A stretch of DNA of 34,007 nucleotides from a bacterium (lineage in GTDB: Bacteria > BMS3Abin14): positions 1 to 34,007 of the forward strand of contig JARGFV010000017.1 of NCBI GenBank assembly GCA_029210545.1, read 5' to 3'. The number at the start of each line of letters is the position of its first letter. The first letter of the stretch is position 1. A program made the translations under genes and the position numbers. This document shows, in pieces, positions 1-34,007 of the stretch. The notes below the pieces were generated by a model. That model worked only from the letters and a program-made list of their open reading frames with translations, made no database searches and had not been told where the DNA came from.

Positions 1-95
1 TTCCCTTTCCTTACAAATCAATGACTTACGGAGTGAGTCATTGATTTGGGCACCCCACGCGGGGTGCGTTGATGGACTTTTTGCGAGTCCATCAA
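1..95 (+). repeat. Modular multi-stem intergenic repeat, copy A
   Basis: Three consecutive hairpins are visible. Stem 1 is AAATCAATGACT (15-26) with AGTCATTGATTT (36-47), and the stem can continue inwards almost to a GGA loop. Stem 2 is GCACCCC (50-56) with GGGGTGC (61-67). Stem 3 is TTGATGGACT (69-78) with AGTCCATCAA (86-95) around the loop TTTTGCG. The same modules in the same order recur at 3395-3504, at 8167-8429 (expanded) and on the minus strand at 33904-34007. The preceding TTCCCTTTCC is the truncated right half of a leading hairpin that is complete at 3395-3413. It lies 12 nt beyond the stop codon of the minus-strand HD-GYP gene. Confidence 0.9.
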
Positions 96-107
96 GGTTA
101 GCCTGTG

Positions 108-1628
108 CTAATTTTCGGATTCTTTTTCGAACATCTCCTCGAACAGCCCCATGTTGTTTTCGAAGATCCTCATGATGTCAGGGTCGAAATGGCCCGGCAG
201 TGTCCGGTCGTCCCCTTCCAGGATGACGCGGCAGGCCTCGTGGTGGGGGAAGGCTGGTTTGTAGACCCTCCGGTTTCTCAGGGCATCGTAGGTGTCGGCC
301 AGGGCCATGATGCGCCCCTCCACCGGGATCTTCTCGCCCGGGATCCCGCTGGGGTAGCCTGACCCGTCCCACTTTTCATGGTGGGAAATCGCGATGTTCT
401 TGCCCATCTGGAATCGCTTGTGCTCCCCGATGATCTGGGCTCCGTAAAACGTGTGTTTTTTCATCTCCTTCCACTCATCCTTGTCCAGACGGCCCGGTTT
501 TTTCAGGATGATAGTGGGAGTGTGCAGTTTGCCGATGTCGTGGAGTGCGGCCTGGACGCGGATGGTGCGGGAAAAACGGTCGGACAGGCCCATCTTCTCG
601 GCGATGCTGGAGCAGAACGCCCCAACCCTCATGATGTGGCCACCGGTGTCCTCGTCCTGGGCTTCCGCCGCGCGGGCCAGGCTGTAGACGGTGTAAATGA
701 AGGCATCTTCCGTCTCGGTTACCTGATTCGACAGGGACTTGAGGAAAAGGGTCTGCATGATCAGGCTTTCGAGGACAGTAGCTTCGTAGCCGGACACGTC
801 GGTCCCGTAGTTGAGAGCGTAAAGGGAAAGGGAGGGGCTGGCATAGGCCACCATGTTGTCGATGGCCGTCCCGGTTGTTTCGAGGGCGCTTATAAAATCC
901 GTAAAGGGTGAATCGGCCAGATCCGCAGCATTGTAATAATGCACAGTGGGTTTACCCGAAGCTACGGAAAATGGTGCGCAGCTTTCCTGTTTCAGGTTCA
1001 ATGAGGTTTTGTTCACCTTGCCGCCTATGCTTGCATATCTGTAAAAGTGACACTTCTGCTCCTCCCCGACTCCAAGGATGATCGTTGTCGGTTTGGTCGC
1101 GGAACCGTTATGGCGGATCAGTTGGCTGACGATGCTGTCCATGGCGAAAAGAAGGTCGAAATCGGTGGGTTGGAACGTCTGGATGATCGATTCGCCGAAG
1201 GTGGTCAGGTTCTTGATGGTGCTATAGGCGTCGTTTAGTTTTGCGTTGAGTTCCTTGACCTTCAGGAGCATCCTGATGCGCGCGAGGACTTCGCTCTCAC
1301 GGAACGGCTTGGTGATGTAATCATCCGCTCCCGCCTCGATCCCCTGGATCCTGTCCTCGGACTGGTTGAGGGCAGTGATCATGATGATCGGAATGTGCCT
1401 GAGGGCGCTGCTGCCCTTTACGGTGCGACAGACTTCAAACCCATCCATCCCCGGCATGTTGACGTCGAGAAGGATGATGTCCGCCGGGATCTCGCCCAGA
1501 ATCCGGAGAGCTTCCTCCCCGTTCCCGGCTTCCAGAAACTCGAAATCGGCCGAATCAAGCATGTCCCGGACAATGGTTCGGTTGAGCCGCTCGTCATCGA
1601 CGCACAGCACGCGGGGCCGGTGTCGCAT
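108..1628 (-). CDS. Response regulator with C-terminal HD-GYP domain (probable c-di-GMP phosphodiesterase)
   Basis: The 506-residue protein begins with a receiver domain (about 5-125): acidic pair D11-D12, phospho-acceptor D55 in LLDVNMPG, T85 and K107. The middle (about 130-300) resembles no family I can name; it may be a divergent sensor or linker. The C-terminus (about 305-500) is an HD-GYP domain with H363-D364 in HDIGKL, HHE at 416-418 and G424-Y425-P426 in DGSGYPSG. HD-GYP proteins hydrolyse cyclic di-GMP, so phosphorylation of D55 would be expected to switch second-messenger turnover. No partner histidine kinase is nearby, so the input signal is unknown. The ATG follows a strong GGAGGAGAGGG ribosome site and a good sigma70-type promoter. 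Catalytic residues look intact, so an active enzyme is likely. Confidence 0.95.
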   Translation of the reverse strand: MRHRPRVLCVDDERLNRTIVRDMLDSADFEFLEAGNGEEALRILGEIPADIILLDVNMPGMDGFEVCRTVKGSSALRHIPIIMITALNQSEDRIQGIEAGADDYITKPFRESEVLARIRMLLKVKELNAKLNDAYSTIKNLTTFGESIIQTFQPTDFDLLFAMDSIVSQLIRHNGSATKPTTIILGVGEEQKCHFYRYASIGGKVNKTSLNLKQESCAPFSVASGKPTVHYYNAADLADSPFTDFISALETTGTAIDNMVAYASPSLSLYALNYGTDVSGYEATVLESLIMQTLFLKSLSNQVTETEDAFIYTVYSLARAAEAQDEDTGGHIMRVGAFCSSIAEKMGLSDRFSRTIRVQAALHDIGKLHTPTIILKKPGRLDKDEWKEMKKHTFYGAQIIGEHKRFQMGKNIAISHHEKWDGSGYPSGIPGEKIPVEGRIMALADTYDALRNRRVYKPAFPHHEACRVILEGDDRTLPGHFDPDIMRIFENNMGLFEEMFEKESEN

Positions 1629-1651
1629 CCCTCTCCTCCATCAGTGCCTAT

Positions 1652-1663
1652 TACAAATTTGTA
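1652..1663. promoter_or_regulatory. 12-bp perfect palindrome, possible operator
   Basis: TACAAATTTGTA is a perfect palindrome lying between the -10 element (1676-1681) and the ribosome site of the minus-strand HD-GYP gene, at roughly +6 to +17 of the predicted transcript. Its position suits a repressor operator, but no regulator is identified and a short AT palindrome can occur by chance. Confidence 0.35.
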
Positions 1664-1675
1664 CCCCTTCTGATA

Positions 1676-1704
1676 TTAATATTGGTAATTCGGGCGTATG
1701 TCAA
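1676..1704 (-). promoter_or_regulatory. Sigma70-type promoter of the HD-GYP regulator
   Basis: Read on the minus strand, a perfect TTGACA (-35; 1699-1704) is followed by a 17-nt spacer and TATTAA (-10; 1676-1681). This sits about 48 nt upstream of the start codon at 1628. Confidence 0.7.
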
Positions 1705-1860
1705 GACCCGGAATCCGATATTCTTTTGGCGGATTTCGGGTATAGGGAACCCTCAATGCCCGCAACCAGACTATTTCAGATCATGCGAACGGCCTGTCGT
1801 GAAGACCAGCACGTCGAACAATCCCGCCCCAGGTATCTAACGATCGTTGATCCTGACGGT

Positions 1861-1888
1861 AAACAGTGAACTGTGAACCGTAAACTGG
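1861..1888. repeat. Degenerate TGAACNG word repeat
   Basis: Words of the form ACAGTGAACTGTGAACCGTAAACTG are strung together here. The same word family is longer at 33292-33385 next to rtcB. It lies just beyond the stop of the small minus-strand gene. The rest of 1705-1904 shows no gene. Confidence 0.6.
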
Positions 1889-1904
1889 TCAAGATCACCA
1901 GCAG

Positions 1905-2084
1905 TTAAAAACAACCCAGTAAGCAGCTGGTGATCTTGATCTTCTTCCCTTCCTCGTTGCACGCCTTGCCAACCAGGGAAAGGTGGATCCCCAGTTTCTC
2001 GGCGATCAGGTGGGCATCCTGGCAGTTAAGTGTTCCGTCCACCGACTTTTCCGCGATCAGTGCTTTCAGCCTGGCGTCATCCAT
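1905..2084 (-). CDS. Small conserved-looking protein with Cys-rich C-terminus (59 aa), function unknown
   Basis: This 59-residue reading frame starts at ATG 2084 behind a clear Shine-Dalgarno (CCCGGGAGGCCCTT then ATG) and ends at TAA 1905. The protein starts MDDARLKALIAEKSVDG and reads like two short helices (residues 1-13 and about 22-42), with Cys21 in between. It ends ITSCLLGCF, so two cysteines sit in a terminal C-x3-C arrangement just before the stop. The composition looks like a folded helical domain, perhaps HTH-like around residues 22-42, rather than random translation. The C-terminal Cys pair suggests metal or redox chemistry, but that is inference. It is transcribed in the same direction as the HD-GYP gene, about 276 nt upstream of it, and lies downstream of rsmI. 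Confidence 0.65.
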   Translation of the reverse strand: MDDARLKALIAEKSVDGTLNCQDAHLIAEKLGIHLSLVGKACNEEGKKIKITSCLLGCF

Positions 2085-2140
2085 AAGGGCCTCCCGGGAT
2101 CTAACTTCGTTAATACACGGAGGTTTTCCAGTTCTCTTAA

Positions 2141-2229
2141 CCCTGTTTTTTCTCCGCGTCCTCGCGTCACCGTGTCACCGTGTCGAGCGATCCTAACTAA
2201 AGTTGATGGACTTTTTGCGACCCTATCAA
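2141..2229. repeat. 8-bp-word repeat plus decayed stem-3 module
   Basis: At 2154-2184 CGCGTC and GTGTCACC words alternate with about 8-bp spacing, the complement of the GGAGACGC/GGAGACAC words at 7461-7524. At 2203-2229 a stem-3 module (TTGATGGACTTTTTGCGA) appears with a damaged right arm ending CTATCAA. The rsmI stop codon (2226-2228, minus) lies inside that right arm. Confidence 0.65.
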
Positions 2230-3050
2230 AGTTCACTCGCCATCTTATAGATCTCTTTCCTGTCCTCACCCGTGATCTGGGCGAGGACGGCTGCCGTTTT
2301 TGAAGCGGACAGCCCCTCCTTTCGAAGCCGCTTTACCGCCGCAACCAGATCCACGTGTCGTTGGCGGGGAGGAGCCCCTTCGACAAGGATCGTAACCTCC
2401 CCCCTGATCTGGTGTTGCTGCAGGCCGCCGGCAACCTCAAGGGCTGTGCCGCGCACGAACTGTTCGTGTATTTTGGTGATCTCCCGTCCCAGGACCAGCT
2501 TGCGATCACCCATGACCGCGGCGATCTCCCTCAACGTCGCCATGACACGGTTCGGGGATTCGTAGAGCACAACGGGGTAACCGGAGGCGGCCAGTTCCAG
2601 CAAGGTTTCTTTCCTGGCGCCGGCCTTGGGCGGGAGGAAACCCTGGAACAGAAACCGTGTCAACTCAATGCCGGAGACCGACATGAGGGTGGTCGCGGCG
2701 CAGGGCCCCGGAACCGGTGTCACCGTGATCCCCTCCCGGAGGCAGAGGGCGACGAGGTGGTGTCCCGGGTCAGAAATCCCGGGGGTGCCGGCGTCGGTGA
2801 TGACAGCAACATCCCGACCTCTTGACAACTCCTGGAGAATCTTCCTTCCAGCCCCTTCACGATTATGCTCCCGGTAGCTCAGGAGGTTCGGACTCAGACC
2901 GAGGGCCGCGAGAAGTTTGCGGCTGTGGCGGGTATCTTCAGCGGCGACAATGTCCACCTTCCCGAGGATTTCCGCAGCGCGCCGTGTGATGTCCCCGAGG
3001 TTGCCGATAGGTGTCGCCACAACGTAAAGGGTGCCTGTGTCTGTGGACAT
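2226..3050 (-). CDS. rsmI: 16S rRNA (cytidine(1402)-2'-O)-methyltransferase RsmI
   Basis: The protein is 274 residues, the normal size for RsmI, a tetrapyrrole-methylase-fold enzyme that 2'-O-methylates C1402 in the decoding centre of 16S rRNA using S-adenosylmethionine. Diagnostic segments are LYVVATPIGNLGDI near the N-terminus, AEDTRHSRKLL at about 36-46, ITDAGTPGISDPG at about 85-97, and VPGPCAATTLMSVSG, all family signatures. A C-terminal extension after about residue 225 is basic and helical, as usual. The ATG start at 3050 gives the canonical N-terminus. The stop codon falls in a decayed copy of the intergenic stem-3 module, so the last residues may have been reshaped by repeat insertion. 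Confidence 0.95.
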   Translation of the reverse strand: MSTDTGTLYVVATPIGNLGDITRRAAEILGKVDIVAAEDTRHSRKLLAALGLSPNLLSYREHNREGAGRKILQELSRGRDVAVITDAGTPGISDPGHHLVALCLREGITVTPVPGPCAATTLMSVSGIELTRFLFQGFLPPKAGARKETLLELAASGYPVVLYESPNRVMATLREIAAVMGDRKLVLGREITKIHEQFVRGTALEVAGGLQQHQIRGEVTILVEGAPPRQRHVDLVAAVKRLRKEGLSASKTAAVLAQITGEDRKEIYKMASEL

Positions 3051-3394
3051 CGATGCCCTCCGGTGTCAGGTGAGTTAACGTTCGGTTCTCTCGCAATTCT
3101 ACAATAGATGGCGGTCTTTATCAGCCATAAGGTAGACAGGGGCATCAATGCAGGATCGAAGCGCGAAGTGCGAAGGGAGGTATACGGAAGGCGATGGGCG
3201 AAGGGCCAAGTTAAGGGATTGTTCCTCGTTTTTGGACTTCGCTCTTCGCGCTGACATTGAAAGCCTCCGATCATGGGATCACCTTTCGAATTCCATAAAA
3301 CCTTTTAAATCCTAATAATTCTGGTAACTTCATTTGATAGAGTCGCAAAAAGTCCAGGCGAAACTTTTCCTTGGTCATTAATGTCCTGGGGAAA
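3051..3394. other. Gene-free spacer between rsmI and pfkA with word repeats
   Basis: I see no credible gene here. 3155-3205 holds GCGAAG-type words (GCGCGAAGTGCGAAGGG) and 3237-3253 their complement (TTCGCTCTTCGCGC). At 3335-3362 there is an inverted, decayed stem-3 module (TTGATAGAGTCGCAAAAAG). The spacer must contain the divergent promoter for rsmI, but I could not pick a convincing one. Confidence 0.6.
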
Positions 3395-3504
3395 GGGAAA
3401 AGCGTCGTTTCCCCTTTCCTTACAAATCAATGACTTATGGTGCGAGTCATTGATTTGGGCGCCCCGCGCGGGGCGCATTGATGGACTTTTTGCGAGTCCA
3501 TCAA
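3395..3504 (+). repeat. Modular multi-stem intergenic repeat, copy B (most complete)
   Basis: Four hairpins in series. Stem 0 is GGGAAA (3395-3400) with TTTCCC (3408-3413) around AGCGTCG. Stem 1 is AAATCAATGACT (3424-3435) with AGTCATTGATTT (3445-3456). Stem 2 is GCGCCCC (3459-3465) with GGGGCGC (3470-3476). Stem 3 is TTGATGGACT (3478-3487) with AGTCCATCAA (3495-3504). Relative to copy A, stem 2 carries a paired A-T to G-C change that preserves pairing. It ends 2 nt before the -35 box of pfkA. Confidence 0.9.
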
Positions 3505-3506
3505 GT

Positions 3507-3536
3507 TTGACAGTCAGAGTGAACATCTGCTACCTT
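3507..3536 (+). promoter_or_regulatory. Likely pfkA promoter
   Basis: TTGACA (3507-3512), an 18-nt spacer and TACCTT (3531-3536, weak -10). The pfkA ATG at 3574 has a strong AGGAGG (3561-3566) 7 nt upstream. Confidence 0.5.
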
Positions 3537-3573
3537 TTTTTGTTAAGACACCGTTTTTCCAGGAGGTTTCGTA

Positions 3574-4611
3574 ATGAGGATCGGAATCTTGACAGGTGGG
3601 GGGGATTGCCCCGGTCTGAACGCGGTTATCCGCGCAGTGACGAGGAAGGGGATCCAGGAGGGGGACAACATCCTCGGGATCCTCCACGGCTGGAAGGGGA
3701 TGATGACGGGTCAGCACGAGGAGTTGACGTTGCGGGCCGTCTCGGGACTCATCCACAGGGGAGGCACCATTCTCCATACCTCCCGGACCAACCCCTTCAA
3801 GGAAGAGGGGGGCAGTAAACAGGTTCTGGTCACCTTCAAGCGGCTCGGTCTGGATGCCCTGGTGGTTATCGGCGGCGAGGACACCCTTGGCGTGGCGAAC
3901 AGGCTGTACGAGGAGCACCACCTTCCCATCGTGGGAGTCCCCAAGACCATCGACAACGACCTGTCCGGCACCGAAGTCACCTTCGGTTTTGACACGGCTG
4001 TATCCGTCGCCACGGAGGCTATCGACCGGCTTCACACCACGGCCGAATCCCACGACCGTGTCATGGTCGTGGAGGTTATGGGGCGTCACGCCGGCTGGAT
4101 AGCTGTCCACTCCGGGTTGGCCGGGGGTGCCGATGCCATTCTCATTCCTGAAAAGCTCTTCGACCTGGATGCAGTATCAGAGTCGATCCGCGCGCGTCAT
4201 GCCCGGGGAAAAAGCTTTTCCATCGTCGTCGTGGCGGAAGGGTCGAGGCTCGATGACAAACATGGTGAAGGCCTCGTCAAACAGAATGAGGAGATAGACG
4301 AATTCGGCCACGTGCGTCTGGGCGGGATCGGCCATTTTCTCGCCAAGGAGCTGGAACAACGCACCGGTTTCGAGACGAGAGTCTCCGTCCTGGGTCACGT
4401 GCAGAGGGGTGGCTCCCCGACGGCCCATGACAGGATCCTGGCAACCCTCTTCGGGGTCAAGGCTCATGAACTGGTCAAGCTTGGAAAGTTCGGGATGATG
4501 GCCGCCATGGTCTGCGGCAAGATAGACGCTGTGCTTCTTGCGGAGGCGGTCAAGGAATTAAAGACCGTGGATATGGACCTGTACGATATCGCGGGGATCT
4601 TCTTTGGATAA
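3574..4611 (+). CDS. pfkA: 6-phosphofructokinase, pyrophosphate-dependent type
   Basis: The 345-residue protein phosphorylates fructose-6-phosphate at C1. The N-terminal GILTGGGDCPGLNAVIRA binds the phosphoryl donor. The catalytic motif PKTIDND spans 123-129 with base D127, and MGRHAGW (around 169-175) contacts the sugar phosphate. Two donor-selecting positions are informative: GGEDT (100-104) has Asp103 where ATP-dependent E. coli-type enzymes have Gly104, and K124 replaces Gly in PGTIDND. The Asp plus Lys combination is the known signature of PPi-dependent PFKs such as the Amycolatopsis enzyme, which are reversible and spare ATP. I infer PPi use; biochemical donor preference cannot be read with certainty. 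It is monocistronic, between two repeat-rich gaps. Confidence 0.95.
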   Translation: MRIGILTGGGDCPGLNAVIRAVTRKGIQEGDNILGILHGWKGMMTGQHEELTLRAVSGLIHRGGTILHTSRTNPFKEEGGSKQVLVTFKRLGLDALVVIGGEDTLGVANRLYEEHHLPIVGVPKTIDNDLSGTEVTFGFDTAVSVATEAIDRLHTTAESHDRVMVVEVMGRHAGWIAVHSGLAGGADAILIPEKLFDLDAVSESIRARHARGKSFSIVVVAEGSRLDDKHGEGLVKQNEEIDEFGHVRLGGIGHFLAKELEQRTGFETRVSVLGHVQRGGSPTAHDRILATLFGVKAHELVKLGKFGMMAAMVCGKIDAVLLAEAVKELKTVDMDLYDIAGIFFG

Positions 4612-4612
4612 A

Positions 4613-4641
4613 GAGCGAAAGCCCGTGCAGGGCTTTCGCTC
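4613..4641 (+). terminator. Perfect 12-bp hairpin after pfkA
   Basis: GAGCGAAAGCCC (4613-4624) pairs perfectly with GGGCTTTCGCTC (4630-4641) around GTGCA, immediately after the pfkA stop. No T-run follows, so it may be a processing or mRNA-stabilising hairpin rather than a classical intrinsic terminator. Confidence 0.6.
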
Positions 4642-4840
4642 AACGCAACGTGAAAAGCGTCGTTTTCCCGTTGCTCACGGATCGAATATACAGCCCTTGG
4701 CTCTCGATCCGGGCGCCCCTCCCAGGCGCGTTTGTTTAAAGCTGTTAGCTATCAGCTGCCAGCTACAGGCTCGATCTTGATCCGGGCGTCTTTCCCGGGC
4801 GCGGATAGTTGTTGATCCGGGCACCCACCCGGGCGCGTTG
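4642..4840 (+). repeat. Repeat array of GATCCGGGCGCC hairpins
   Basis: It starts with a stem-0 relative (GTGAAAAGCGTCGTTTTCCCG, 4650-4670). Three related GC hairpins follow: 4706-4730 (GATCCGGGCGCC...GGCGCG), 4779-4803 and 4814-4837. These resemble stem 2 of the modular repeat (GATTTGGGCGCC), with TT changed to CC. Between the first two, 4739-4768 is an AGCT-rich word repeat (AGCTGTTAGCTATCAGCTG). No gene is present. The remaining bases up to gpsA (4841-4895) must hold its promoter. Confidence 0.7.
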
Positions 4841-4895
4841 GTAATTTTTTGTGAAGCCATCTAATTGTTGTCGATCACACTAGGGCTGGCGTGAT

Positions 4896-6999: not shown

Positions 7000-7460
7000 A
7001 GGTTCAGGAACTCTGCGTCCGTAGAGGGTTGACACTGGCAGTGGCGGAATCGTGCACGGGAGGTCTCCTCGGAGGCAGTCTGACGGCGCTTCCCGGAAGT
7101 TCCGGATATTTTCTCGGCGGCATCATCGCCTACTCCAACCGTCTTAAAACCGACCTTTTGAACGTTCCGGCCGACCTCCTGGAATCCGAGGGGGCGGTGA
7201 GCAGGTCAGTGGCCGAGATTATGGCAAGAGAGGTTACCGTTGTCACCGGCGCTGATTGCGGGATCTCGGTCACCGGTGTCGCCGGACCGTCGGGCGGGAC
7301 CGTGGATAAACCGGTGGGGACTGTGTGGATCGGTATCGCGGTACCTGCGGGGACGATCTCCCGGCTGTACCATTTTTCAGGACACCGCGATGAGGTGAGG
7401 GAACAGGCGGTTGCCGCGGCTCTTGGCCTGTTCCTCGAGATAGCCGGGGAAACCGTTTGA
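6996..7460 (+). CDS. pncC: CinA C-terminal-domain protein, nicotinamide-nucleotide amidase
   Basis: I choose TTG 6996, which overlaps the pgpA stop as TTGA and has GGAGGT at 6981-6986; this gives 154 residues. An upstream in-frame start at 6960 would lack that site. The protein is the single CinA-C domain: LTLAVAESCTGGLLGGSLTALPGSSGYFLGGIIAYSN, GAVSRSVAEIMAREV and ISVTGVAGPSGGT(x)DKPVGTVWIG. Stand-alone versions (PncC) deamidate nicotinamide mononucleotide to nicotinate mononucleotide, salvaging the pyridine ring of NAD. The Ser in ESCTGG and the TGVAGP loop form the active site in known structures. An 8-bp tandem array starts directly after the stop. Confidence 0.93.
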   Translation: MKVQELCVRRGLTLAVAESCTGGLLGGSLTALPGSSGYFLGGIIAYSNRLKTDLLNVPADLLESEGAVSRSVAEIMAREVTVVTGADCGISVTGVAGPSGGTVDKPVGTVWIGIAVPAGTISRLYHFSGHRDEVREQAVAAALGLFLEIAGETV

Positions 7461-7524
7461 CACGGAGACGCGGAGACGCGGAGACGCGGAGACACGGAGA
7501 CGCGGAGACACGGGGACGCGGCGA
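7461..7524. repeat. Eight tandem copies of an 8-bp unit (CGCGGAGA)
   Basis: Eight consecutive 8-bp units alternate between CGCGGAGA and CACGGAGA, with CACGGGGA and CGCGGCGA at the end. The array starts at the first base after the pncC stop. The complementary words recur at 2154-2184 and 29182-29212. Confidence 0.9.
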
Positions 7525-7535
7525 ATCGGAAAAAA

Positions 7536-7622
7536 CATGAGTTTTTTTGGATTTTGGGTTTTGGATTTTAGATTAAATTACCTTTGGAATCTGGAATTTG
7601 GAATATGGAATTGGAAATCAAG
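7536..7622. repeat. TTTGGAAT / TTTTGGATTTT word repeat overlapping the thpR start
   Basis: TTTTTTGGATTTTGGGTTTTGGATTTTAG-type words (7542-7571) are followed by GGAAT words spaced about 7 bp (7583-7620). The thpR start codon at 7605 and its upstream region lie inside this array. A related word occurs at 22733-22746, just before gspG. Confidence 0.7.
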
Positions 7623-8192
7623 TCGCTGCGGATTTTCCTCGCCATCCCCATTGCACCCGATATCCTCGAAGCCTTGGGGAAGGGTGTTGAAACCCTCCGG
7701 GAGACCCGGGCGCCGGTCAGCTGGGTCCGTCCGGGAGGCATGCACCTTACCGTTAAGTTCCTCGGGGATACCGAGCCGGAGTGGATAGCCCCCCTTGCGG
7801 ACTCGTTGGCCGGGATCTGCGGCCTGATCGAACCGTTTCCTGTCTCTGTGGCCGGGATGGGAGCTTACCCAAGCCTGCGCCGGCCGAGGGTGATCTGGGC
7901 CGGGGTGGAAGAACTCTCAGGAACCCTGCTGCGTCTGCACGAAGGGGTCGATAATGTGTGTGCCGGGATGGGTTGGCCCAGGGAAAAAAGAAAGTTTTCC
8001 CCCCACGTCACAGTCGGGCGCGTGAAAGGGAATATCAACCTCGCCCGCCTTTCCGCTGCCATGGGCGAGATAGAGGACGAGCACTGGGGTGACCAGGAGG
8101 TGATGTCCATGGTGCTGTACCGGAGTCACCTGGAGAAGGGCGGGGCGAGGTATGAGGAAATGAGAATTTTCCCTTTCCTTACAAATCAATGA
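7605..8192 (+). CDS. thpR: RNA 2',3'-cyclic phosphodiesterase
   Basis: This 195-residue 2H-phosphoesterase (LigT/ThpR family) opens 2',3'-cyclic phosphate RNA ends to 2'-phosphates. The two catalytic HxTx motifs are HLTV (47-50) and HVTV in the middle (FSPHVTVGRVKG). The N-terminal LRIFLAIPI and LYRSHLEKGGARYEEMRIF near the end are typical. ATG 7605 (MELEIKSLRIF) is preferred over 7584, which adds a tail of repeat-encoded residues. Both ends come from repeats: the start lies in a GGAAT word array, and the last eight or so codons (FPFLTNQ, then TGA) are translated from the modular intergenic repeat. The family usually ends at about YEEMRIFPL, so the tail looks like a repeat-provided stop. Confidence 0.92.
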   Translation: MELEIKSLRIFLAIPIAPDILEALGKGVETLRETRAPVSWVRPGGMHLTVKFLGDTEPEWIAPLADSLAGICGLIEPFPVSVAGMGAYPSLRRPRVIWAGVEELSGTLLRLHEGVDNVCAGMGWPREKRKFSPHVTVGRVKGNINLARLSAAMGEIEDEHWGDQEVMSMVLYRSHLEKGGARYEEMRIFPFLTNQ

Positions 8193-8429
8193 CTGCTGAT
8201 AGATCACCAAAGCCTGTGCGAGACTTTGGCTCTATGGGAAGGGAAAAGCGTGGTTTCCGGTTCCCTCACGGATCAGTGACATGTATTTCAGTCACTGATC
8301 CGGGCGCCTCTCCCAGGCGCGGCAGTTTTCACGGGTCATCGATCCGGGCGCCCTTCCCAGGCGCGGCGGGTCATTGATTTGGGCACCCCGCGCGGGGCGT
8401 GTTGATGGACTTTTTGCGGGTCCATCAAC
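8167..8429 (+). repeat. Modular multi-stem intergenic repeat, expanded copy C
   Basis: It begins with TTTCCCTTTCCTTACAAATC shared with copies A and B. The order then is a CCAAAG/CTTTGG hairpin (about 8199-8227), a stem-0 relative (8239-8258), and a 11-bp hairpin GGATCAGTGAC (8270-8280) with GTCACTGATCC (8291-8301). Three GC hairpins follow (8297-8321, 8341-8365, 8376-8400), then stem 3 GTTGATGGAC (8401-8410) with GTCCATCAAC (8420-8429). The thpR stop is inside its left end. It looks like two nested or fused copies of the element. Confidence 0.8.
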
Positions 8430-8524
8430 CTTTCCACATTTCATCCCGGGAATGGTTCATCGCTATGAATTGCCGTAAAGGATGGTTTTTTTTTCGTACT
8501 TCGATCTTTGTCCTTCGCTCTGAG

Positions 8525-23834: not shown

Positions 23835-24209
23835 ATGATCACGCAGCCGCGGAGGAGAAGGGGTGAATCCGGCTTCACCCTCCTGGAGGTCCTGGCGGCC
23901 CTTTCCATCCTGGGGCTGTCGCTCCTGGTGCTCCTCCAGACCGATGGGCTCAACTCGTCCAGGGCTCTTCATTCCCAACGTCTGCTGGGAGCCGTCAGGC
24001 TGGCTGGAGAACAGATGGAGGAGGTTTTCAGCTCCGGGACCGAAGGCCTGGCATCCGGGGAGGGACAGGATGAAGGCGGCCTGTACCGGTGGGAAAGAGT
24101 CGTGGTTGACACCGAGTATGCCGGGTTGAAGGAGGTGCAACTCACCGTCCGCTGGTCCGAGGGGAGGCGGGAGGAAAGCTACCTCGTCCTTGCCTACCTC
24201 CCGGAGTAA
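23835..24209 (+). CDS. gspI: Type II secretion system minor pseudopilin GspI
   Basis: The 124-residue precursor has leader MITQPRRRRGESG, then FTLLEVLAALSILGLSLLVLLQ with Glu at mature position 5. The rest (ALHSQRLLGAVRLAGEQMEE, RWERVVVDTEY, VQLTVRWSEGRREESYLVLAYLPE) has the short two-sheet GspI pattern; WSEG and the final LxxYLP are typical. GspI normally initiates tip assembly with GspJ and GspK. The start abuts the gspH stop. gspJ should follow but is replaced by a 647-nt gap. Confidence 0.92.
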   Translation: MITQPRRRRGESGFTLLEVLAALSILGLSLLVLLQTDGLNSSRALHSQRLLGAVRLAGEQMEEVFSSGTEGLASGEGQDEGGLYRWERVVVDTEYAGLKEVQLTVRWSEGRREESYLVLAYLPE

Positions 24210-24856
24210 TCCTGACGGACGGGAAAAACGGCGCTTTTCCCTTTCCCCAGAACATCAATGAGCCAGGAAAAGTCCCGGACTGAACTTTTTGCGACCCTGT
24301 CAAGTTTCGGCCGAGCGGCGCAAAGGCCTGGTTTTCACCACGGAGGCACGGAGAAATGCGTAGGAATGCTGAATGTCGGGGGATAAAGCTTGTCATCGCG
24401 AGCCCAAATATAGTCAATTTCCATATTCTTCCTCCCCTCATGTAGGCTTACTTCCTTACCCTTCCTCCCCCTGCCGAGGGGGGAGGATCAGAGGTGGGGG
24501 TGAAAGTGACTGCCGAGGGGGGAGGACCGAGGTGGGGGTGAAAGGAACCTGCCCAGGCGAAGCGATCTCAGGCGTATGCCGTCAGAGCGTAAAGAGCATT
24601 CACCACGGAGCTTGCTATAACAGAAAATCTCAAGCGTGTGAGCGGGGTGACTACCGTCTTGTGCCATTAAGGCGACGTTGTCGACCTTCGCACAGAGCAA
24701 GCTAGCGCCCCGTTTGCACCTTAGCCCGCATGAAGCAAGGTAAGGGCTCCGTTGAGACCCTCGAATCACCAGAGGCGGGCAAGGTGCTATAAATAAAAAG
24801 CTTGACTACAATAAACCAGGTCACAGAGAAAGACAAATGCGAAAAAGGTCGAGGGC
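24210..24856. other. Repeat-filled gap at the expected position of gspJ
   Basis: No pseudopilin-like sequence is seen in any frame on either strand. The 5' part (24222-24310) holds decayed modules of the intergenic repeat: a stem-0 relative (GGGAAAAACGGCGCTTTTCCC) and GAACTTTTTGCGACC. Next come TTCACCACGGAGGCACGGAG (24336-24354), the direct repeat at 24471-24547 and another ATTCACCACGGAG (24598-24610). 24640-24800 shows no known motif and no tRNA. The region just before gspK ends AAAAGGTCGAGGGC, a poor ribosome site. Confidence 0.75.
24471..24547. repeat. Tandem pair of a 38-nt GC-rich sequence, REP-like
   Basis: Two adjacent copies (24471-24509 and 24510-24547) each read CTGCCGAGGGGGGAGGA, then a GAGGTGGGGGTGAAAG ending. 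The first is preceded by TCCTCCCC, which pairs with GGGGAGGA to make a hairpin (about 24463-24486). Confidence 0.8.
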
Positions 24857-25867
24857 ATGATGGTGACTGAATACCCGGTGGCTGAATTCAAAAGGCAAGA
24901 GGGGATTGCCATGATCCTTGCCATCGTGGCGGTCTTCCTCCTTTCGGTCGCGGTCCTGGCGACACGGTCCGGCGTGGACCTGGCCTCCGGGATCGCGGCC
25001 AGTGCCGCGCACGAGACACAGGCGGGTTACCTGGCAAGATCCGGGTTGGCCATGGTCAGCGCCGCGCTGGCAGAGGATGATACAGCTGTGGACTCCTTCA
25101 ATGACGACTGGGCGGCTGCCAACGACATGGGGGCAGTTCCCATCGCGGATGTGGGCTGGGCTGTGGGAAAGGTCACCGACGAGGAAGGGAAGCTGAACGT
25201 CCTGGACCTTGTCAACAAGGATCGGATGTCCGATGAGCTTACCGAACTGGCCGAGATCCGCCTCCTGGATCTTCTCATGATCATCGGCCTGACAGAATCC
25301 AGGGCCGATGAGATCGTTGACAGTCTCGTGGACTGGATGGATGAGGACAGCACCGTGACCGGTTTCGGGGCGGAGGATTCCTACTACGGGTCCCTGGTCC
25401 CGGAGTACAGCTGCCCGGACACTTATTTGATGACCGTTGACGAGCTGGCACTGGTCAAGGGGATCGGGCCGATCCTGCTGTACCAGGGTGAGGGTGAGGT
25501 ACCGCCCCTTCTGCGGTTTGTCACCGTTTACGGGGATAAGGCCGGTGACTACCGGAAAGTGAACATCAATACGGCCCCGGTGGAAGTCCTCATGGCGCTG
25601 GCTCCGGAGATAGACCGGCAGCTGGCAGAGGAGATCGTGGCCTCCAGGGACACCGAACCGTTCACTTCCCCCGCCCAGATCAAGGACGTGCCCGGCTTTC
25701 CCGGGGATCAGTTCTACAGCGAGACCCTCGCTTCCCTGGTCGACGTTTCCAGCTCCCATTTTTCGGCCAGGATCACCGGTGAAACGCCGTCGGCTTCCAG
25801 CCAGGCCTTCGGCGTCTTCAGAAGGACAGGTCAGGCGGTCAAGCTTGTTTACTACAAATCCTTTTGA
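24857..25867 (+). CDS. gspK: Type II secretion system minor pseudopilin GspK
   Basis: The 336-residue precursor caps the pseudopilus tip. Leader MMVTEYPVAEFKRQEG is cleaved before IAMILAIVAVFLLSVAVLA; position +5 is Leu, and the absence of Glu5 is normal for GspK. After the helix, GYLARSGLAMVSAALAEDD leads to the alpha domain with EGKLNVLDLVNKDRM, VDSLVDWMDEDSTV, VNINTAPVEVLMAL and helix-hairpin-helix-like VDELALVKGIG segments, all family signatures. The stop codon lies within the left arm of a perfect 25-bp inverted repeat. It is separated from gspI by the repeat-filled gspJ gap and from gspL by 285 nt of inverted repeats. Confidence 0.94.
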   Translation: MMVTEYPVAEFKRQEGIAMILAIVAVFLLSVAVLATRSGVDLASGIAASAAHETQAGYLARSGLAMVSAALAEDDTAVDSFNDDWAAANDMGAVPIADVGWAVGKVTDEEGKLNVLDLVNKDRMSDELTELAEIRLLDLLMIIGLTESRADEIVDSLVDWMDEDSTVTGFGAEDSYYGSLVPEYSCPDTYLMTVDELALVKGIGPILLYQGEGEVPPLLRFVTVYGDKAGDYRKVNINTAPVEVLMALAPEIDRQLAEEIVASRDTEPFTSPAQIKDVPGFPGDQFYSETLASLVDVSSSHFSARITGETPSASSQAFGVFRRTGQAVKLVYYKSF

Positions 25868-25919
25868 TAATGTGAACCGGCACAAAGAGAAATTGGTTCA
25901 CATTATCAAAAGGATTTGT
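25854..25919. repeat. Perfect 25-bp inverted repeat over the gspK stop
   Basis: Arms at 25854-25878 and 25895-25919 are exact reverse complements, starting ACAAATCCTTTTGAT on the left, around a 16-nt loop. The left arm encodes the final residues and TGA stop of gspK. No T-run follows, so it is not a standard terminator, though the RNA would form a very stable hairpin. 25920-26088 holds no recognisable gene. Confidence 0.95.
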
Positions 25920-26088
25920 GAAAATTACAATTTGGCTTACTGGAAGTCTTCAGTCGAAGTGGAGTCTCCATAGGTCGATGGCATTCTAACCGGAAGAAAT
26001 GGGACACGGATCCAGGTTTCATGAATCCGGATGATACCGAACTGTCTCACTGAGGAACAAGGCCGGATAAATGGAACCAGCATATCCA

Positions 26089-26155
26089 CATTTTAATTTT
26101 CAGTCATCCGTTAACCAGGAACTTTATCCCCCAGGGATGACTGGAAATTAAAATG
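26089..26155. repeat. 21-bp inverted repeat sequestering the gspL start codon
   Basis: The arm CATTTTAATTTTCAGTCATCC (26089-26109) pairs with 26135-26155 (GGATGACTGGAAATTAAAATG) over 20 of 21 positions, the exception being a G.U-type pair in RNA. The loop is 25 nt. The gspL ATG (26153-26155) and the only nearby purine-rich stretch (GGAAATTAAA) are within the right arm. Confidence 0.9.
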
Positions 26156-27547
26156 TTTGAACGAAGATCCACAGGCATATCCCTCGAGGCCGACGGTACC
26201 GTCAGGGTTGCTGAACTGACGGCCACGCCGCGCAGCCTCGCCCTGTCCCGGATGGCGTCCTTTGAACCGGAAGGCCCGGATACCCATACGTCATGGGAAA
26301 ACGGGATTCGAAAGGCGGGCGTGGAAGGGTACGAGATGTCCTGTGTGGTGATCGGGATCCCTGATGCCCTGGTGTTCCGCAAATCCCTCACACTTCCTTT
26401 CAGGAACCGGAACCGGATCATGCAGGTCCTTCACTCTGAACTGGAAGGGGAGATCCCCCTGCCCCCGGGGACCTTCGTCGCCGATTATCTGGATGGCCCT
26501 CAGGAAGGTGACGGCGTCTCGGTGACCGTCCTGGCCGTGGAAAACGATACCATCTCGCGTGTCCTGGAGATGGTGGGCCCCGATGCCGGGGTCAGAGGGG
26601 TCCAGACAACGGGTGTCGGTATCATCGCCGCCTCTCTGCGGGCCGGGATCGACGAAGGTGTCGTCGTCTGGTGCGGCCACACCGATGCGGTGGTTGTGGA
26701 GATGCGTTCTTCCGTTCCCGCAGGTATCAGGCGTTACCATCTGTCCGGACGGGACCAACCCGACGCCGCCCTTCTGGCTGACGCTGTCAGGCCCTTGTCC
26801 AGAGTCGGTGACAGGATTTGCCTGATGGGAGCGGGACCCATGGATACGCTGGCTCCCATGCTCAGTGCAGAGGGCACCTTGAGGATCGCCAGGTCTCTGG
26901 AACTGGGGATCGTCTCAGAGCCTGCCGTGGTGGCCGGCGACCTGCAGGATCACCTGCCCGCTTTCGGGTTGGCCCTTCGCGGTGTGGGGGCAAGGGGGGG
27001 GCTGCCCTTCGACCTGAGACAAGGGCAGTTCCTTGAAAGCCGGCCCCTCCAGGACCTCAAGGGCCCCATCATCCGGACAGCGGCCATTGCTGTCCTCGCT
27101 CTGCTGCTGGGAATTGGAAGCCTCGTCCTCGGCCTCGACAGCGCCAGAAAGGAGTACAACGGGTACGTGACGCGAATGGAAAGTGAGTTTACGGAGCTTT
27201 TCCCGGGCACGAGGGTGGTGAACGAGATCGCGCAAACGACCGAGAAACTGGAACTTCTCAAGAAGAGAACGGAGACCCTGGCAGGCCTTTCCGGTGGAAG
27301 CGCCCTCGGGGCCCTGTCCCGGCTGAGTGCGCTTGTGCCTCCTGACGTCGCCCTGAGGCTCGACGAACTGTCCTACGATTCCCGAAAGCTGAGGTTGGAA
27401 GGGTCCGTTTCCTCCTTCGACGCCGTGGACAAGATCAAATCCAGCCTCGAAGGGGATCCCATGTTCGCCCAGGTTCAGGTGCAAAACGCCCAGGTCGGCG
27501 CCGATCTCAACAAGGTGACCTTCCGCCTCGTCATGGAGGTCCGGTAA
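26153..27547 (+). CDS. gspL: Type II secretion system protein GspL
   Basis: The 464-residue bitopic protein recruits GspE to the membrane. The cytoplasmic part (1 to about 300) is an actin/PilM-like fold: STGISLEADGTVRVAELTA at the N-terminus, VVIGIPDALVFRKSLTLPF and LHSELEGEIPLPP. It is followed by a TM helix (about 306-325, IRTAAIAVLALLLGIGSLVLG), a coiled-coil-like linker (ARKEYNGYVTRMESEF) and a periplasmic ferredoxin-like domain (VALRLDELSYDSRKLRLEGSVSSFDAVDKIKSSL). Assignment rests on this architecture and on its position between gspK and gspM. The start codon is in a strong inverted repeat, which suggests controlled translation. Confidence 0.85.
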   Translation: MFERRSTGISLEADGTVRVAELTATPRSLALSRMASFEPEGPDTHTSWENGIRKAGVEGYEMSCVVIGIPDALVFRKSLTLPFRNRNRIMQVLHSELEGEIPLPPGTFVADYLDGPQEGDGVSVTVLAVENDTISRVLEMVGPDAGVRGVQTTGVGIIAASLRAGIDEGVVVWCGHTDAVVVEMRSSVPAGIRRYHLSGRDQPDAALLADAVRPLSRVGDRICLMGAGPMDTLAPMLSAEGTLRIARSLELGIVSEPAVVAGDLQDHLPAFGLALRGVGARGGLPFDLRQGQFLESRPLQDLKGPIIRTAAIAVLALLLGIGSLVLGLDSARKEYNGYVTRMESEFTELFPGTRVVNEIAQTTEKLELLKKRTETLAGLSGGSALGALSRLSALVPPDVALRLDELSYDSRKLRLEGSVSSFDAVDKIKSSLEGDPMFAQVQVQNAQVGADLNKVTFRLVMEVR

Positions 27548-27548
27548 G

Positions 27549-29249: not shown

Positions 29250-29255
29250 TATAAT
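29250..29255 (+). promoter_or_regulatory. Consensus -10 box TATAAT
   Basis: A perfect TATAAT without a good -35 (TTCCTT at the 17-nt spacing). It could transcribe the propeptide and S8 genes from about 29262. Confidence 0.45.
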
Positions 29256-29270
29256 GACCATGGGAGTTTG

Positions 29271-29303
29271 GGGGGCGCCGAGGGTGACGGCCCCCTTTTT
29301 TTT
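29271..29303 (+). terminator. Intrinsic terminator, possible attenuator
   Basis: GGGGGC (29271-29276) pairs with GCCCCC (29290-29295), followed directly by eight Ts (29296-29303). It either ends the gsp transcript or attenuates the short transcript from the TATAAT at 29250. The propeptide ribosome site GGAG (29306-29309) starts two bases after the T-run. Confidence 0.7.
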
Positions 29304-29317
29304 CTGGAGACAGAAAA

Positions 29318-29653
29318 ATGTTGAATAAAGGAAGAGGCTGTACATTTTTCTGTGTGTTAATGATCGCTGTCACGATCGCAGGCCCCGTTTGGGGCATGTC
29401 ACGTAAACCCCCTGAGCCCGCTTACGTCGAGGGTCAGGTTCTGATCAAGTTCCACGAAAACGTGTCCGAAGACAGGATTTTCGAGATTCTGGATTTGGAG
29501 AACTGTGAAATCATAGACCGTATAGAGATGATCGGTGTGTTTGTCGTAAATATCCGGGACGATGAGACAGTTTCTGAGAAAGTGGATAGTTTCAGCGCTT
29601 ATCCTGAGGTGAATTATGCTGAGCCCGACTATAAAGCGAAAGCCCTCCGGTAG
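29318..29653 (+). CDS. Stand-alone subtilisin-propeptide-like (I9/fervidolysin prodomain) secreted protein
   Basis: The 111-residue protein has a Sec-type signal (TFFCVLMIAVTIAGPVWG, about 9-26). The mature part reads YVEGQVLIKFHENVSEDRIFEILDLENCEIIDRI, VFVVNIRDDETVSEKVDSFSAYPEVNYAEPDYK. This is the (V)xGxVL(I)KF... AEPD pattern of subtilisin N-terminal prodomains. The downstream protease has its own copy (YVPGRVLVKF... NVLFAEPDRY). Thus this gene appears to encode a free propeptide, which in known systems can fold or inhibit its protease. It has no catalytic domain. Function as a chaperone or inhibitor of the adjacent S8 enzyme is inferred. It is 12 nt upstream of that gene. Confidence 0.75.
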   Translation: MLNKGRGCTFFCVLMIAVTIAGPVWGMSRKPPEPAYVEGQVLIKFHENVSEDRIFEILDLENCEIIDRIEMIGVFVVNIRDDETVSEKVDSFSAYPEVNYAEPDYKAKALR

Positions 29654-29665
29654 GTCAGGTGTCTT

Positions 29666-31717: not shown

Positions 31718-31746
31718 AGTAACAATACCAAAGCCCACTACTTTAG

Positions 31747-31776
31747 AACCGCGGCATGTGCCTGCGGTTTTTCTTT
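31747..31776 (+). terminator. Intrinsic terminator of the S8 protease gene
   Basis: AACCGC and GCGGTT arms enclose GGCATGTGCC-like inner pairing, followed by TTTTTCTTT. CCAAAGT words flank it in opposite orientation (31688-31712 forward, 31778-31803 complementary). Confidence 0.7.
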
Positions 31777-31814
31777 GGCCTTTGGACTTTGGTCTTTGGA
31801 CTGTCCTCTTTGCG

Positions 31815-33275
31815 TCAACCCTTTATGACACAAAGGGGACGCATTCTAGCCACCTTCTCCGCGATCCCGGCCCCGTGCACTACCTCCACCACCGCCGACA
31901 CGTCCTTGTAGGCCTCCGGCATCTCCTCGGCGAGGGACTGTTTGCTCGCGGCCCTGGCGAAGATGCCCCTGTCTTCCAGTTCCCGGTGGATGGCACGCCC
32001 CCTGGCGGCCCTGGTGGCGGCCTTTCTCGAAAGGACCCTTCCTGCCCCGTGGCACGAACTCCCGAAGGTCTCGGACATGGCTGCCGCGGTTCCCATGAGC
32101 AGGTAGGAGGCCGTCCCCATGTCCCCCGGGATGATCACGGGCTGTCCGTGGGGACGGTAGGCATCGGGAAGCTCGGGGTGACCCGGTCCGAAGGCCCGTG
32201 TGGCGCCCTTGCGGTGGACGGCAAGGGAGAGGTCCCTGCCGCCGATCTCGTGTTTTTCCAGCTTGACGATGTTGTGGGCCACGTCGTAGACCAGCCGGAA
32301 CCCCAGCTCCGAAGGCCCCACCTGGAAAAAATCCATGAAAATCTCCCGGACCTGGTGCATGAGACACTGGCGGTTGGCCCAGGCGTAGTTGGCGGCGCAC
32401 TTCATGGCTTTCCAGTACTCCTGCCCTTCAGGCGAGAGGAAGGGGGCGCAGGCGAGCTGCCGGTCGGGAAGTTCGATGCCGTATTTGCGCACCGCCCGGT
32501 TCATGACCTCGAGATAGTCGGTGCACACCTGGTGGCCAAGGCCCCGGGAGCCGGAGTGGACCATGACCGTGACCTGGCCTGTGTGGACACCGAATGCCGA
32601 AGCGGCGTTTTCGTCATACACCTCGTCGACGTACTGGACCTCGATGAAATGGTTGCCGCTGCCCAGGGTCCCCTGTTGGGGCATACCCCGCTCGATCGCG
32701 CGCTCACTCACCGCATCCGGGTCGGCGCCCTCCAGGCACCCCCCGGCCTCCGTAGTGATGAGGTCGGCAGCTTCTCCCATCCCGTTTTCCACGGCCCACC
32801 GCGATCCCCTTGTCAGGACTTTTCCCAGTTCCTTGCCGCCAAGCCGGATCGAACCCCTGGTCCCGACGCCAGTTGGGACTTTATTGAAAAGGGTGTCCAC
32901 CAGTTTTTTAAGCCTGTCGGCTCGCGCCAGGTCATCTTTCGACAGGTTCGTCACGGCGAGACGGACCCCGCAATTGATGTCGTAGCCCGTGCCGCCGGGG
33001 GAGATGATGCCGCCGGCGTTGATGTCCGTGGCCACCACGCCGCCGATGGGAAGGCCGTATCCGAAATGCATGTCCGGCATGGCCATGGAAGCGCGAACGA
33101 TGCCGGGCAGGGTCGCTCCGTTGGCGACCTGGCGGGCGCTGGCGTCCTTCCTGATATCCTTCATGAGGAGGTCGTCGGCATAGATGAACCCCGGGACCCT
33201 CATGCCGGGAACGGAGCCTTTGGGGATCTCCCAGCGGTAGGGTGAGATCCTGTTGATTGTTATCTGGTCGGACAT
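31815..33275 (-). CDS. rtcB: RNA-splicing ligase RtcB (3'-phosphate/cyclic phosphate to 5'-OH)
   Basis: RtcB joins RNA 3'-phosphate or 2',3'-cyclic phosphate ends to 5'-OH ends using GTP and Mn2+. I use ATG 33275 (MSDQITINRISPYRWEIP) because AAGGAGG lies 7-8 nt upstream; the extension to 33362 reads as repeat sequence. The 486-residue protein contains DMHFGYGLPIGGV, GGTGYDINCGVRL (metal-ligand C102), GTLGSGNHF, HSGSRGLGHQ, PGDMGTASYL and SSCHGAGRVLSRKAA with the guanylated His at about 409. All active-site motifs look intact. It is downstream of archease in the same direction, 113 nt apart, with a word repeat between. Role: RNA repair or tRNA splicing; physiological substrate unknown here. 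Confidence 0.97.
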   Translation of the reverse strand: MSDQITINRISPYRWEIPKGSVPGMRVPGFIYADDLLMKDIRKDASARQVANGATLPGIVRASMAMPDMHFGYGLPIGGVVATDINAGGIISPGGTGYDINCGVRLAVTNLSKDDLARADRLKKLVDTLFNKVPTGVGTRGSIRLGGKELGKVLTRGSRWAVENGMGEAADLITTEAGGCLEGADPDAVSERAIERGMPQQGTLGSGNHFIEVQYVDEVYDENAASAFGVHTGQVTVMVHSGSRGLGHQVCTDYLEVMNRAVRKYGIELPDRQLACAPFLSPEGQEYWKAMKCAANYAWANRQCLMHQVREIFMDFFQVGPSELGFRLVYDVAHNIVKLEKHEIGGRDLSLAVHRKGATRAFGPGHPELPDAYRPHGQPVIIPGDMGTASYLLMGTAAAMSETFGSSCHGAGRVLSRKAATRAARGRAIHRELEDRGIFARAASKQSLAEEMPEAYKDVSAVVEVVHGAGIAEKVARMRPLCVIKG

Positions 33276-33291
33276 GGGATGTCCTCCTTGA

Positions 33292-33385
33292 AGTGAACAG
33301 TGAACGATGAACGGTGAACAGAAACTGGTGAACCGTGAAGCGTGAAACGCAAAACCGTTCACGATTCACTATTCACATTTCACCG
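33292..33385. repeat. TGAACNG word repeat between archease and rtcB
   Basis: About ten degenerate 7-8-nt words of the type GTGAACAGTGAAC / CGATGAACGGTGAAC / GTGAAGCGTGAAACG run 33292-33352, then their complement (TTCACGATTCACTATTCACATT) 33357-33380, so the region can also fold. The same words occur at 1861-1888. Confidence 0.75.
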
Positions 33386-33388
33386 ATC

Positions 33389-33811
33389 TCATACATCAAA
33401 TATCACCCTCACCCGGACCTCCCCGGGTGTCTCCTCGATAGCCAGCCCGTGGTAGGTGGCCGCCTTGACGTGGGTGTTGATGATGTGCCTGGAAGGGTCG
33501 TAGATCGTGCCTGTCAGGGTGGCCTCGAGGCGGCCGCCCACGATCTCGAGGCTCGGAACGTTTACGGGAATAAAGCCTTCGGTGTCTTCCCGGTAGATGA
33601 TCTCGTTGAGGAACCTGATGAGGAGATCCTGTGGCGATGGAGCCTGGACGAGAACGGTCCGTGTGACCTTGTCATCTTCCGTCGGGAGGTCGGCCATGAC
33701 GGCGGCGAGCCCGAGGCCCGCCTGGACAAACGCCTCTTCAAGGGTCTCCCCCCACGCCTCGAGGCCGAGGTCGGCAGTGATCCCATCAAGCTCTTTGTAC
33801 CCGCCCGCCAT
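33389..33811 (-). CDS. Archease, RtcB cofactor
   Basis: Archease accelerates RtcB guanylylation and turnover. The 140-residue protein has KELDGITADLGLEAWGETLEEAFVQAG near the N-terminus, where many archeases read DHTAD; here the His is missing and the spacing differs (DGITAD). PSPQDLLIRFLNEIIYREDTEGFIP (core) and the acidic C-terminal VRVIFDV match the family. The gene is immediately upstream of rtcB, the standard pairing, which supports the call. ATG 33811 is the only start, as a TGA precedes it by one codon; there is no visible ribosome site. The motif variation could alter metal binding, but such variants exist. Confidence 0.87.
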   Translation of the reverse strand: MAGGYKELDGITADLGLEAWGETLEEAFVQAGLGLAAVMADLPTEDDKVTRTVLVQAPSPQDLLIRFLNEIIYREDTEGFIPVNVPSLEIVGGRLEATLTGTIYDPSRHIINTHVKAATYHGLAIEETPGEVRVRVIFDV

Positions 33812-33816
33812 ATTTC

Positions 33817-33845
33817 ATAATAGCTGTGCGGCGGCACTGCCGCAA
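33817..33845 (-). promoter_or_regulatory. Possible promoter giving a leaderless archease mRNA
   Basis: On the minus strand TTGCGG (33840-33845), a 17-nt spacer and TATTAT (33817-33822) lie just 5 nt before the archease ATG. No Shine-Dalgarno exists between, so transcription would start at or next to the ATG. The -35 box is weak (3/6). Confidence 0.45.
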
Positions 33846-33903
33846 CGGGGAGAGCAGGACCGAAACGGATAATACACCGACAGGGCGACGGGGCGATTAA
33901 GGA

Positions 33904-34007
33904 TTGATGACTTTGCAAAAAGTCATCAATGCGCCCCGCGCGGGGCGCCCAAATCAATGACTCACTCCGTAAGTCATTGATTTGTAAGGAAAGGGAAAAC
34001 GACGCTT
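33904..34007 (-). repeat. Modular multi-stem intergenic repeat, inverted copy D
   Basis: Read on the minus strand the order matches copies A and B: a stem-0 remnant (AAGCGTCGTTTTCCC), stem 1 identical to copy A including its loop (33951-33983 in plus coordinates), stem 2 GCGCCCC/GGGGCGC (33931-33948), and stem 3 in a variant form TTGATGACTTT/AAAGTCATCAA (33904-33929). It runs off the window end. 33846-33903 contains no gene. Confidence 0.9.

What the first reader, a model, noticed from the sequence alone, without database searches (positions are those of the whole stretch)
1..34007. A modular multi-stem intergenic repeat family with paired base changes
At least four copies (1-95, 3395-3504, 8167-8429 expanded, 33904-34007 inverted) share an ordered set of hairpins: stem 0 GGGAAA/TTTCCC, stem 1 AAATCAATGACT/AGTCATTGATTT, stem 2 GCGCCCC/GGGGCGC and stem 3 TTGATGGACT/AGTCCATCAA, plus decayed pieces at 2203-2229, 3335-3362 and 24222-24310. 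Stem 2 has a paired A-T to G-C difference between copies A and B. Stem 3 differs in both arms in copy D yet still pairs. This suggests structure is maintained or copied as a hairpin, as in REP/BIME or MITE-like elements. No transposase or RAYT gene is in the window to explain mobility.
Basis: seen in the sequence. Interest (0 to 1): 0.78.

Follow-up and report, generated by a model that had tools for sequence, protein, structure and literature searches.

The report
Modular hairpin-rich mobile repeat (MITE)
The repeated hairpin blocks are copies of a small, gene-less jumping DNA element, hundreds of copies strong in this uncultivated bacterium and its relatives, that leaves a 6-letter duplication where it lands and was probably moved by the enzyme of a larger transposon with matching ends found elsewhere in the same genome.

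Summary
The repeat is real and is a MITE, not a REP/BIME. The standard unit is about 155 bp: imperfect terminal inverted repeats (GATRGRGTCGCAAAAAGTCC) around a chain of five hairpins. Elements are flanked by an exact 6-bp target duplication (AANNTT): 26 of 66 paired-end elements in this genome (shuffled flanks: mean 1.6, maximum 7) and 10 of 20 in related genomes. At the conserved trmD-rplS junction only one of eleven genomes carries a copy. Copy B and the 'decayed piece' at 3335-3362 are the two ends of one element (3336-3502). The window is one contig, cut at both ends inside copies. A 1665-bp IS elsewhere in the genome has the same ends and an IS1182-related DDE transposase that lost its catalytic-E region; homologues in two other genomes begin exactly at the same end. 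Paired stem changes are genuine (35 two-sided cells; 7.8 in shuffles), but G-U is no commoner than A-C, so nothing marks an RNA strand. Longer forms carry nested extra module sets. The genome's RAYT has its own unrelated flanking repeat. Eleven of twelve genomes of the taxonomic family carry the repeat; essentially none of 133 others do.

The parts
1..93 (+). Copy A: right part of an element (end of hairpin M2, hairpins M3, M4, M5 and right terminal repeat), cut by the contig start; right half of the target duplication AAGGTT at 94-99
   Evidence: cmsearch E 9e-31; sequence
2205..2227 (-). 23-bp solo unit GATAGGGTCGCAAAAAGTCCATC flanked by perfect 6-bp duplication AAAGTT (2199-2204 and 2228-2233)
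   Evidence: sequence
3336..3502 (+).
4607..4861 (+).
   Evidence: cmsearch 4607-4746 E 2e-21 and 4764-4861 E 2e-6
8166..8426 (+). Copy C: 5'-truncated outer element whose third hairpin encloses a second, inner set of modules (8198-8365); right half of the target duplication AACCTT at 8427-8432
24215..24301 (-). Left-end half of an element (terminal repeat, M1, M2), right part missing
   Evidence: profile hit, hmm positions 2-76
33906..34007 (-). Copy D: right part of an element, cut by the contig end; right terminal hairpin is the GATGACTT/AAGTCATC variant
   Evidence: cmsearch E 2e-35

Best explanation
The repeat is a family of miniature inverted-repeat transposable elements. A DDE transposase supplied in trans bound the ~20-bp ends, GATRGRGTCGCAAAAAGTCC, and inserted the element into a 6-bp AANNTT target, which was duplicated (the duplication is shown; the enzyme is inferred). 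The probable source of the enzyme is a 1665-bp IS with the same ends and an IS1182-related transposase, now seen only as defective or incomplete copies. The inside is a chain of hairpins that varies by substitution with both arms changing together, and by gain of nested inner module sets. The copies look like mobile-element baggage rather than host genes' regulators: gene arrangement and orientation around them are neutral.
For: Copy number: 136 left-end matches at <=3 mismatches with 0 in the reversed-pattern control; 209 segments in 1.53 Mb. Ends and duplication: exact 6-bp duplication at 26/66 elements, shuffled mean 1.6 and max 7, no other length favoured; replicated 10/20 in G003-G011 with ends set independently by the covariance model, shuffled mean 0.9 and max 4. 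Mobility: trmD-rplS holds an element with AATATT duplication in G003 and none in ten other genomes. Partner: IS at G000:C1:15758-17422 with ends GACGGCATCGCAAAAAGT... and GATGGACCCGCAATTAGTC..., DUF772 + DDE_Tnp_1; homologues in G009 and G007 align from exactly base 1, inside ends GACGGACTCGCAAAAAGT and GATGGCTTCGCAAAAAGT. Neutral context: tandem/divergent/convergent 23/11/7 against 414/150/143 gaps; same/opposite strand 10/13.
Against: The IS copy in this genome is flanked by AATATT and AAGGTT, which fit the target consensus but do not match each other, so its own 6-bp duplication is not shown. It lacks about 227 bp, including the presumed catalytic-E region, and no intact copy was found in twelve genomes, so the link rests on shared ends. 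IS and MITE share only the outer ~18-20 bp. Only about 40% of duplications are exact; the rest have decayed or never existed.
Confidence: 0.85

Rival explanations
1. REP/BIME-like repeats spread by a RAYT (Y1 transposase) acting on single-stranded hairpins.
For: Hairpin-only solo units of 23 bp and 46-bp inverted pairs look like REP and REPIN; a true RAYT gene exists at G000:C150, with one copy of the repeat about 800 bp upstream.
Against: Exact 6-bp target duplications and long terminal inverted repeats; no GTAG/GGAG foot at 25 hairpins; the RAYT is flanked by its own unrelated inverted repeat CCCGGTGTCAGAGCA; ends match a DDE IS instead.
Confidence: 0.04
2. A conserved structured RNA (regulator or 3'-UTR element) that spread as a mobile element and is kept for its RNA function.
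For: Several hairpins with compensatory changes and conserved linkers; highly stable fold.
Against: G-T pairs are not commoner than A-C pairs on the modelled strand (17 v 29 over four stems; 17 v 16 in hairpin M2); no preferred gene strand or arrangement; no Rfam match; absent from orthologous sites.
Confidence: 0.08
3. The repeats are MITEs, but moved by a different, unsampled transposase; the IS1182-related IS shares ends by descent only.
For: No intact IS copy and no matching duplication around the one in this genome.
Against: Ends match on both sides of the transposase gene and at independent homologues in two other genomes, with the homology starting at the first base.
Confidence: 0.2

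Closest known systems
BOX elements of Streptococcus pneumoniae (boxA-boxB(n)-boxC; PMC3049150)
   Same: Modular small interspersed repeat with terminal inverted repeats and target duplications, variable number of internal modules, stable stem-loops, a partner IS proposed from shared ends
   Different: No sequence relation shown; here modules are nested (an inner module set sits in the loop of an outer hairpin), the duplication is 6 bp AANNTT and the proposed partner is IS1182-related
Other bacterial MITEs such as Correia and ERIC (review PMC10969869)
   Same: Small, gene-less, terminal inverted repeats, target duplication, mostly intergenic, hairpin-forming
   Different: Different ends, duplication and host group
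IS1182 family, including IS1272 (stem-loop-replacing transposition, PMC5678879)
   Same: Transposase related to IS1182 (NF033551, 116 bits); hairpin DNA is prominent in both
   Different: Below the family cut-off (270 bits); IS1272 targets palindromes and leaves no duplication, whereas this MITE duplicates 6 bp
REP/REPIN with RAYT
   Same: Short hairpin units, singly and as inverted pairs, in hundreds of copies
   Different: No GTAG/GGAG foot, RAYT not associated, true target duplications present

Membership tests
MITE | Terminal inverted repeats | tested here: met
   Paired inverted ends at fixed spacings 46, 154/155, 167, 175, 188 bp
MITE | Target site duplication | tested here: met
   26/66 exact 6 bp in own genome, 10/20 in relatives, well above shuffled flanks
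MITE | Short, no transposase gene, high copy number | tested here: met
   About 155 bp; 136 left ends in 2.7 Mb
MITE | Ends match an autonomous element in the same host | tested here: met
   IS at G000:C1:15758-17422, though that copy is defective
MITE | Insertion polymorphism at orthologous sites | tested here: met
   trmD-rplS: present in G003, absent in ten other genomes of the family
REP/BIME (RAYT-associated) | Copies flank a RAYT gene | tested here: not met
   RAYT at C150 is flanked by its own inverted repeat; the nearest copy of this family lies about 800 bp away on one side
REP/BIME (RAYT-associated) | GTAG/GGAG tetranucleotide at the hairpin foot | tested here: not met
   0 of 25 hairpins
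IS1182 family (for the partner IS) | Transposase over the curated family cut-off | tested here: not met
   NF033551 116 bits against a cut-off of 270
IS1182 family (for the partner IS) | Intact DDE triad | tested here: inconclusive
   Own copy lacks the C-terminal stretch that carries the presumed catalytic E in the G007 homologue
BOX elements | boxA/boxB/boxC sequence homology | not tested
   Compared by architecture only, from PMC3049150

The most novel reading that the evidence does not exclude
The hairpins are working parts of the mobility mechanism: an IS1182-type transposase that favours stem-loops inserts new copies into the hairpin loops of older ones, so that elements grow as nested hairpins inside hairpins, and arm-to-arm copying during that process keeps both arms of each stem matched.
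Probability: 0.15. Interest if true: 0.65.

Novelty: new variant of a known kind. Interest (0 to 1): 0.42.

Why it matters
It is an apparently undescribed, family-wide MITE with a measurable target (AANNTT), a candidate partner IS and a graded series from 23-bp units through 155-bp units to 564-bp nested composites, so the growth of modular repeats such as BOX can be studied by comparison. Copies lie at 35 of 89 contig ends examined, so the repeat explains much of the fragmentation of this draft genome. The paired stem changes in DNA without an RNA-strand signature are a caution for covariation-based RNA discovery in mobile repeats.

Tried and rejected
RAYT as mobiliser: rejected. IS1634 as partner: the one fragment (C154) is itself interrupted by a copy of the repeat and lacks these terminal repeats; other IS1634 hits in the family have none nearby. 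Canonical IS1182 (486 aa, G003:C29) has different ends. A 3174-bp pair of end-like motifs in C6 encloses ordinary genes. Rfam: no match. Phage and plasmid records and viral contigs: no match. Literature: the end sequence was found only in unrelated papers. Gene arrangement and strand bias: none. Inversion of hairpin M2: 1 of 81, so flipping is not a major route. A first pattern for hairpin M2 was off by one base and found only random sequence, which served as a no-pairing control. One weak model match in an unrelated genome (G103, E 2.5e-9) and a 25-nt match in G067 were not inspected.

Full report
What is there. The window is a complete contig (G000:C17) of a 2.72-Mb draft genome in 241 contigs.

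In the window. Copies A (1-93) and D (33906-34007) are cut by the ends of the contig. An unreported, diverged multi-module copy lies at 4607-4861, and 24215-24301 is a left half. At 2205-2227 a 23-bp unit GATAGGGTCGCAAAAAGTCCATC (minus strand) is flanked by perfect AAAGTT on both sides. That size can be obtained from a full element by deletion between the AGTCC in each end, and the 46-bp class by deletion between GGACTTTT repeats; this is inference from the sequence.

Chance and number. The left-end 47-mer at up to 3 mismatches occurs 136 times in the genome and never in the reversed-pattern control. A terminal-repeat 22-mer occurs 281 times, control 0. In the 1.53 Mb read directly there are 209 element segments, 1.3% of the sequence, and 35 of 89 contig ends lie in or within 25 nt of a copy.

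Transposition. Pairing the ends gave 69 pairs, most at fixed lengths of 46, 154-155, 167, 175 and 188 bp. Of 66 elements with both flanks, 26 have an exact 6-bp direct duplication; pairing left flanks with the right flanks of other elements gives a mean of 1.6 and a maximum of 7 in 1000 shuffles; no other length is favoured. The target is AANNTT (A 37/40 and 32/40, then T 30/40 and 38/40). In nine other genomes, with element ends set by the covariance model rather than by the flanks, 10 of 20 have the exact duplication (shuffled mean 0.9, max 4). At trmD-rplS, G003 carries an element flanked by AATATT, while ten other genomes of the family have no copy there. Together these show a transposed element; they exclude REP-type spread as the main route.

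The partner. Of the DDE transposases sought in the genome, one at G000:C1 (ORF 520 aa, DUF772 plus DDE_Tnp_1; NF033551 IS1182 at 116 bits against a cut-off of 270) lies between GACGGCATCGCAAAAAGTATC and, inverted, GATGGACCCGCAATTAGTC. The flanks AATATT and AAGGTT fit AANNTT but differ from each other. Compared with G007 the copy in this genome lacks about 227 bp, which in G007 encodes the stretch with the presumed catalytic glutamate (VEATMS), and the G009 copy is truncated. So the link is by shared ends, not by demonstrated activity, and the source may be extinct or unassembled here.

Paired changes. On 29 full-length copies from own and other genomes, 41 pairs in four stems: 96.2% of cells pair (shuffled 93.0), 35 cells have both sides changed (shuffled 7.8, 0/500 as high), and sliding the partners by 1-3 columns gives 0-5. 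These controls do not remove shared ancestry, but changes such as M2 column 49/66 (GC 18, CG 6, UA 3) and M3 column 84/102 (UA 24, CG 3, GC 2) need several events. In 53 distinct M2 hairpins found by linker and loop, the outer eight pairs are 390/424 Watson-Crick against 317 with shuffled arms. If an RNA strand were selected, G-U should exceed A-C mismatches. It does not: 17 against 29 over four stems (the A-C excess coming largely from one M1 pair) and 17 against 16 in M2. Hence matching of the arms at DNA level, by arm-to-arm copying or by a need for the palindrome in transposition, is the more economical reading; this is inference.

Modular growth. Elements longer than 160 bp parse as M1-M2 repeated one to several times, then M4-type hairpins one to three times, then M5. 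In the 271- and 327-bp forms and in copy C the extra block sits between the two arms of the outer M3, begins with a diverged copy of the terminal repeat (GATAGATCACCAAAGTC) and lacks its own M5, so it reads as a nested relative in the loop of the outer hairpin. Several share the same junction, so a single nesting followed by spread is as likely as repeated nesting. IS1272, an IS1182-family member, is reported to target stem-loops (PMC5678879); whether that applies here is untested.

Function. Among 41 full-size elements in clear gaps, tandem/divergent/convergent is 23/11/7 against 414/150/143 for all gaps, and strand relative to tandem genes is 10 same, 13 opposite (simple ORF calls). Median distance is 83 bp to stop codons and 107 bp to starts. 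I find no sign of a host role.

Distribution. Eleven of the twelve genomes of the taxonomic family have copies; G001, complete, has none. Among 133 genomes outside, the model finds one weak match in one genome. No phage or plasmid record, viral contig or held paper contains it.

Verdict. A new MITE family with an IS1182-related candidate partner, 6-bp AANNTT duplication, and nested modular hairpins; closest in architecture to pneumococcal BOX (PMC3049150). Shown: ends, duplication, number, polymorphism, covariation. Inferred: the enzyme, the cause of paired changes, the nesting mechanism.

Noticed in passing
L202 (G003:C29), near 24027-25109 of the contig: An intact canonical IS1182-family transposase (486 aa) sits beside MITE copies; a MITE left end nearby breaks off just before where its M2 hairpin would begin, which would fit insertion at a stem-loop.
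   Followed up: partly
L143 (G000:C154:4106-4989): An IS1634-like transposase gene is interrupted by a copy of the repeat; its 5' part lies beyond the contig end.
   Followed up: partly
L032 (G000:C150), gene at about 1466-2118: A true RAYT (NF047646, 84 bits) flanked by its own 15-bp inverted repeat CCCGGTGTCAGAGCA/TGCTCTGACACCGGG, probably a separate REP system.
   Followed up: partly
window 25855-25921 and 26093-26157: Two long near-perfect inverted repeats between gspK and gspL (CAAATCCTTTTGATAATGTGAACC... and ACATTTTAATTTTCAGTCATCC...), unrelated to the family studied.
   Followed up: no
window 7459-7520: Tandem octamer GGAGACGC/GGAGACAC after cinA, and similar 'ACGGAG' runs elsewhere (22433, 24334).
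   Followed up: no
window 1859-1890 and 33293-33376: Runs of GTGAACNGTGAAC-type repeats in gaps on both sides of the window; similar wording is seen in several other loci of this genome and of G003.
   Followed up: no
L072 4703, L079 15369, L105 9922, L118 1054, L128 7926: A second internal type with the same ends but a different inside (AAGTCTCTTCGAGCCATTTTGC ... GTCACGCCG.CGGCGTGAC), perhaps another MITE subfamily of the same transposase.
   Followed up: no
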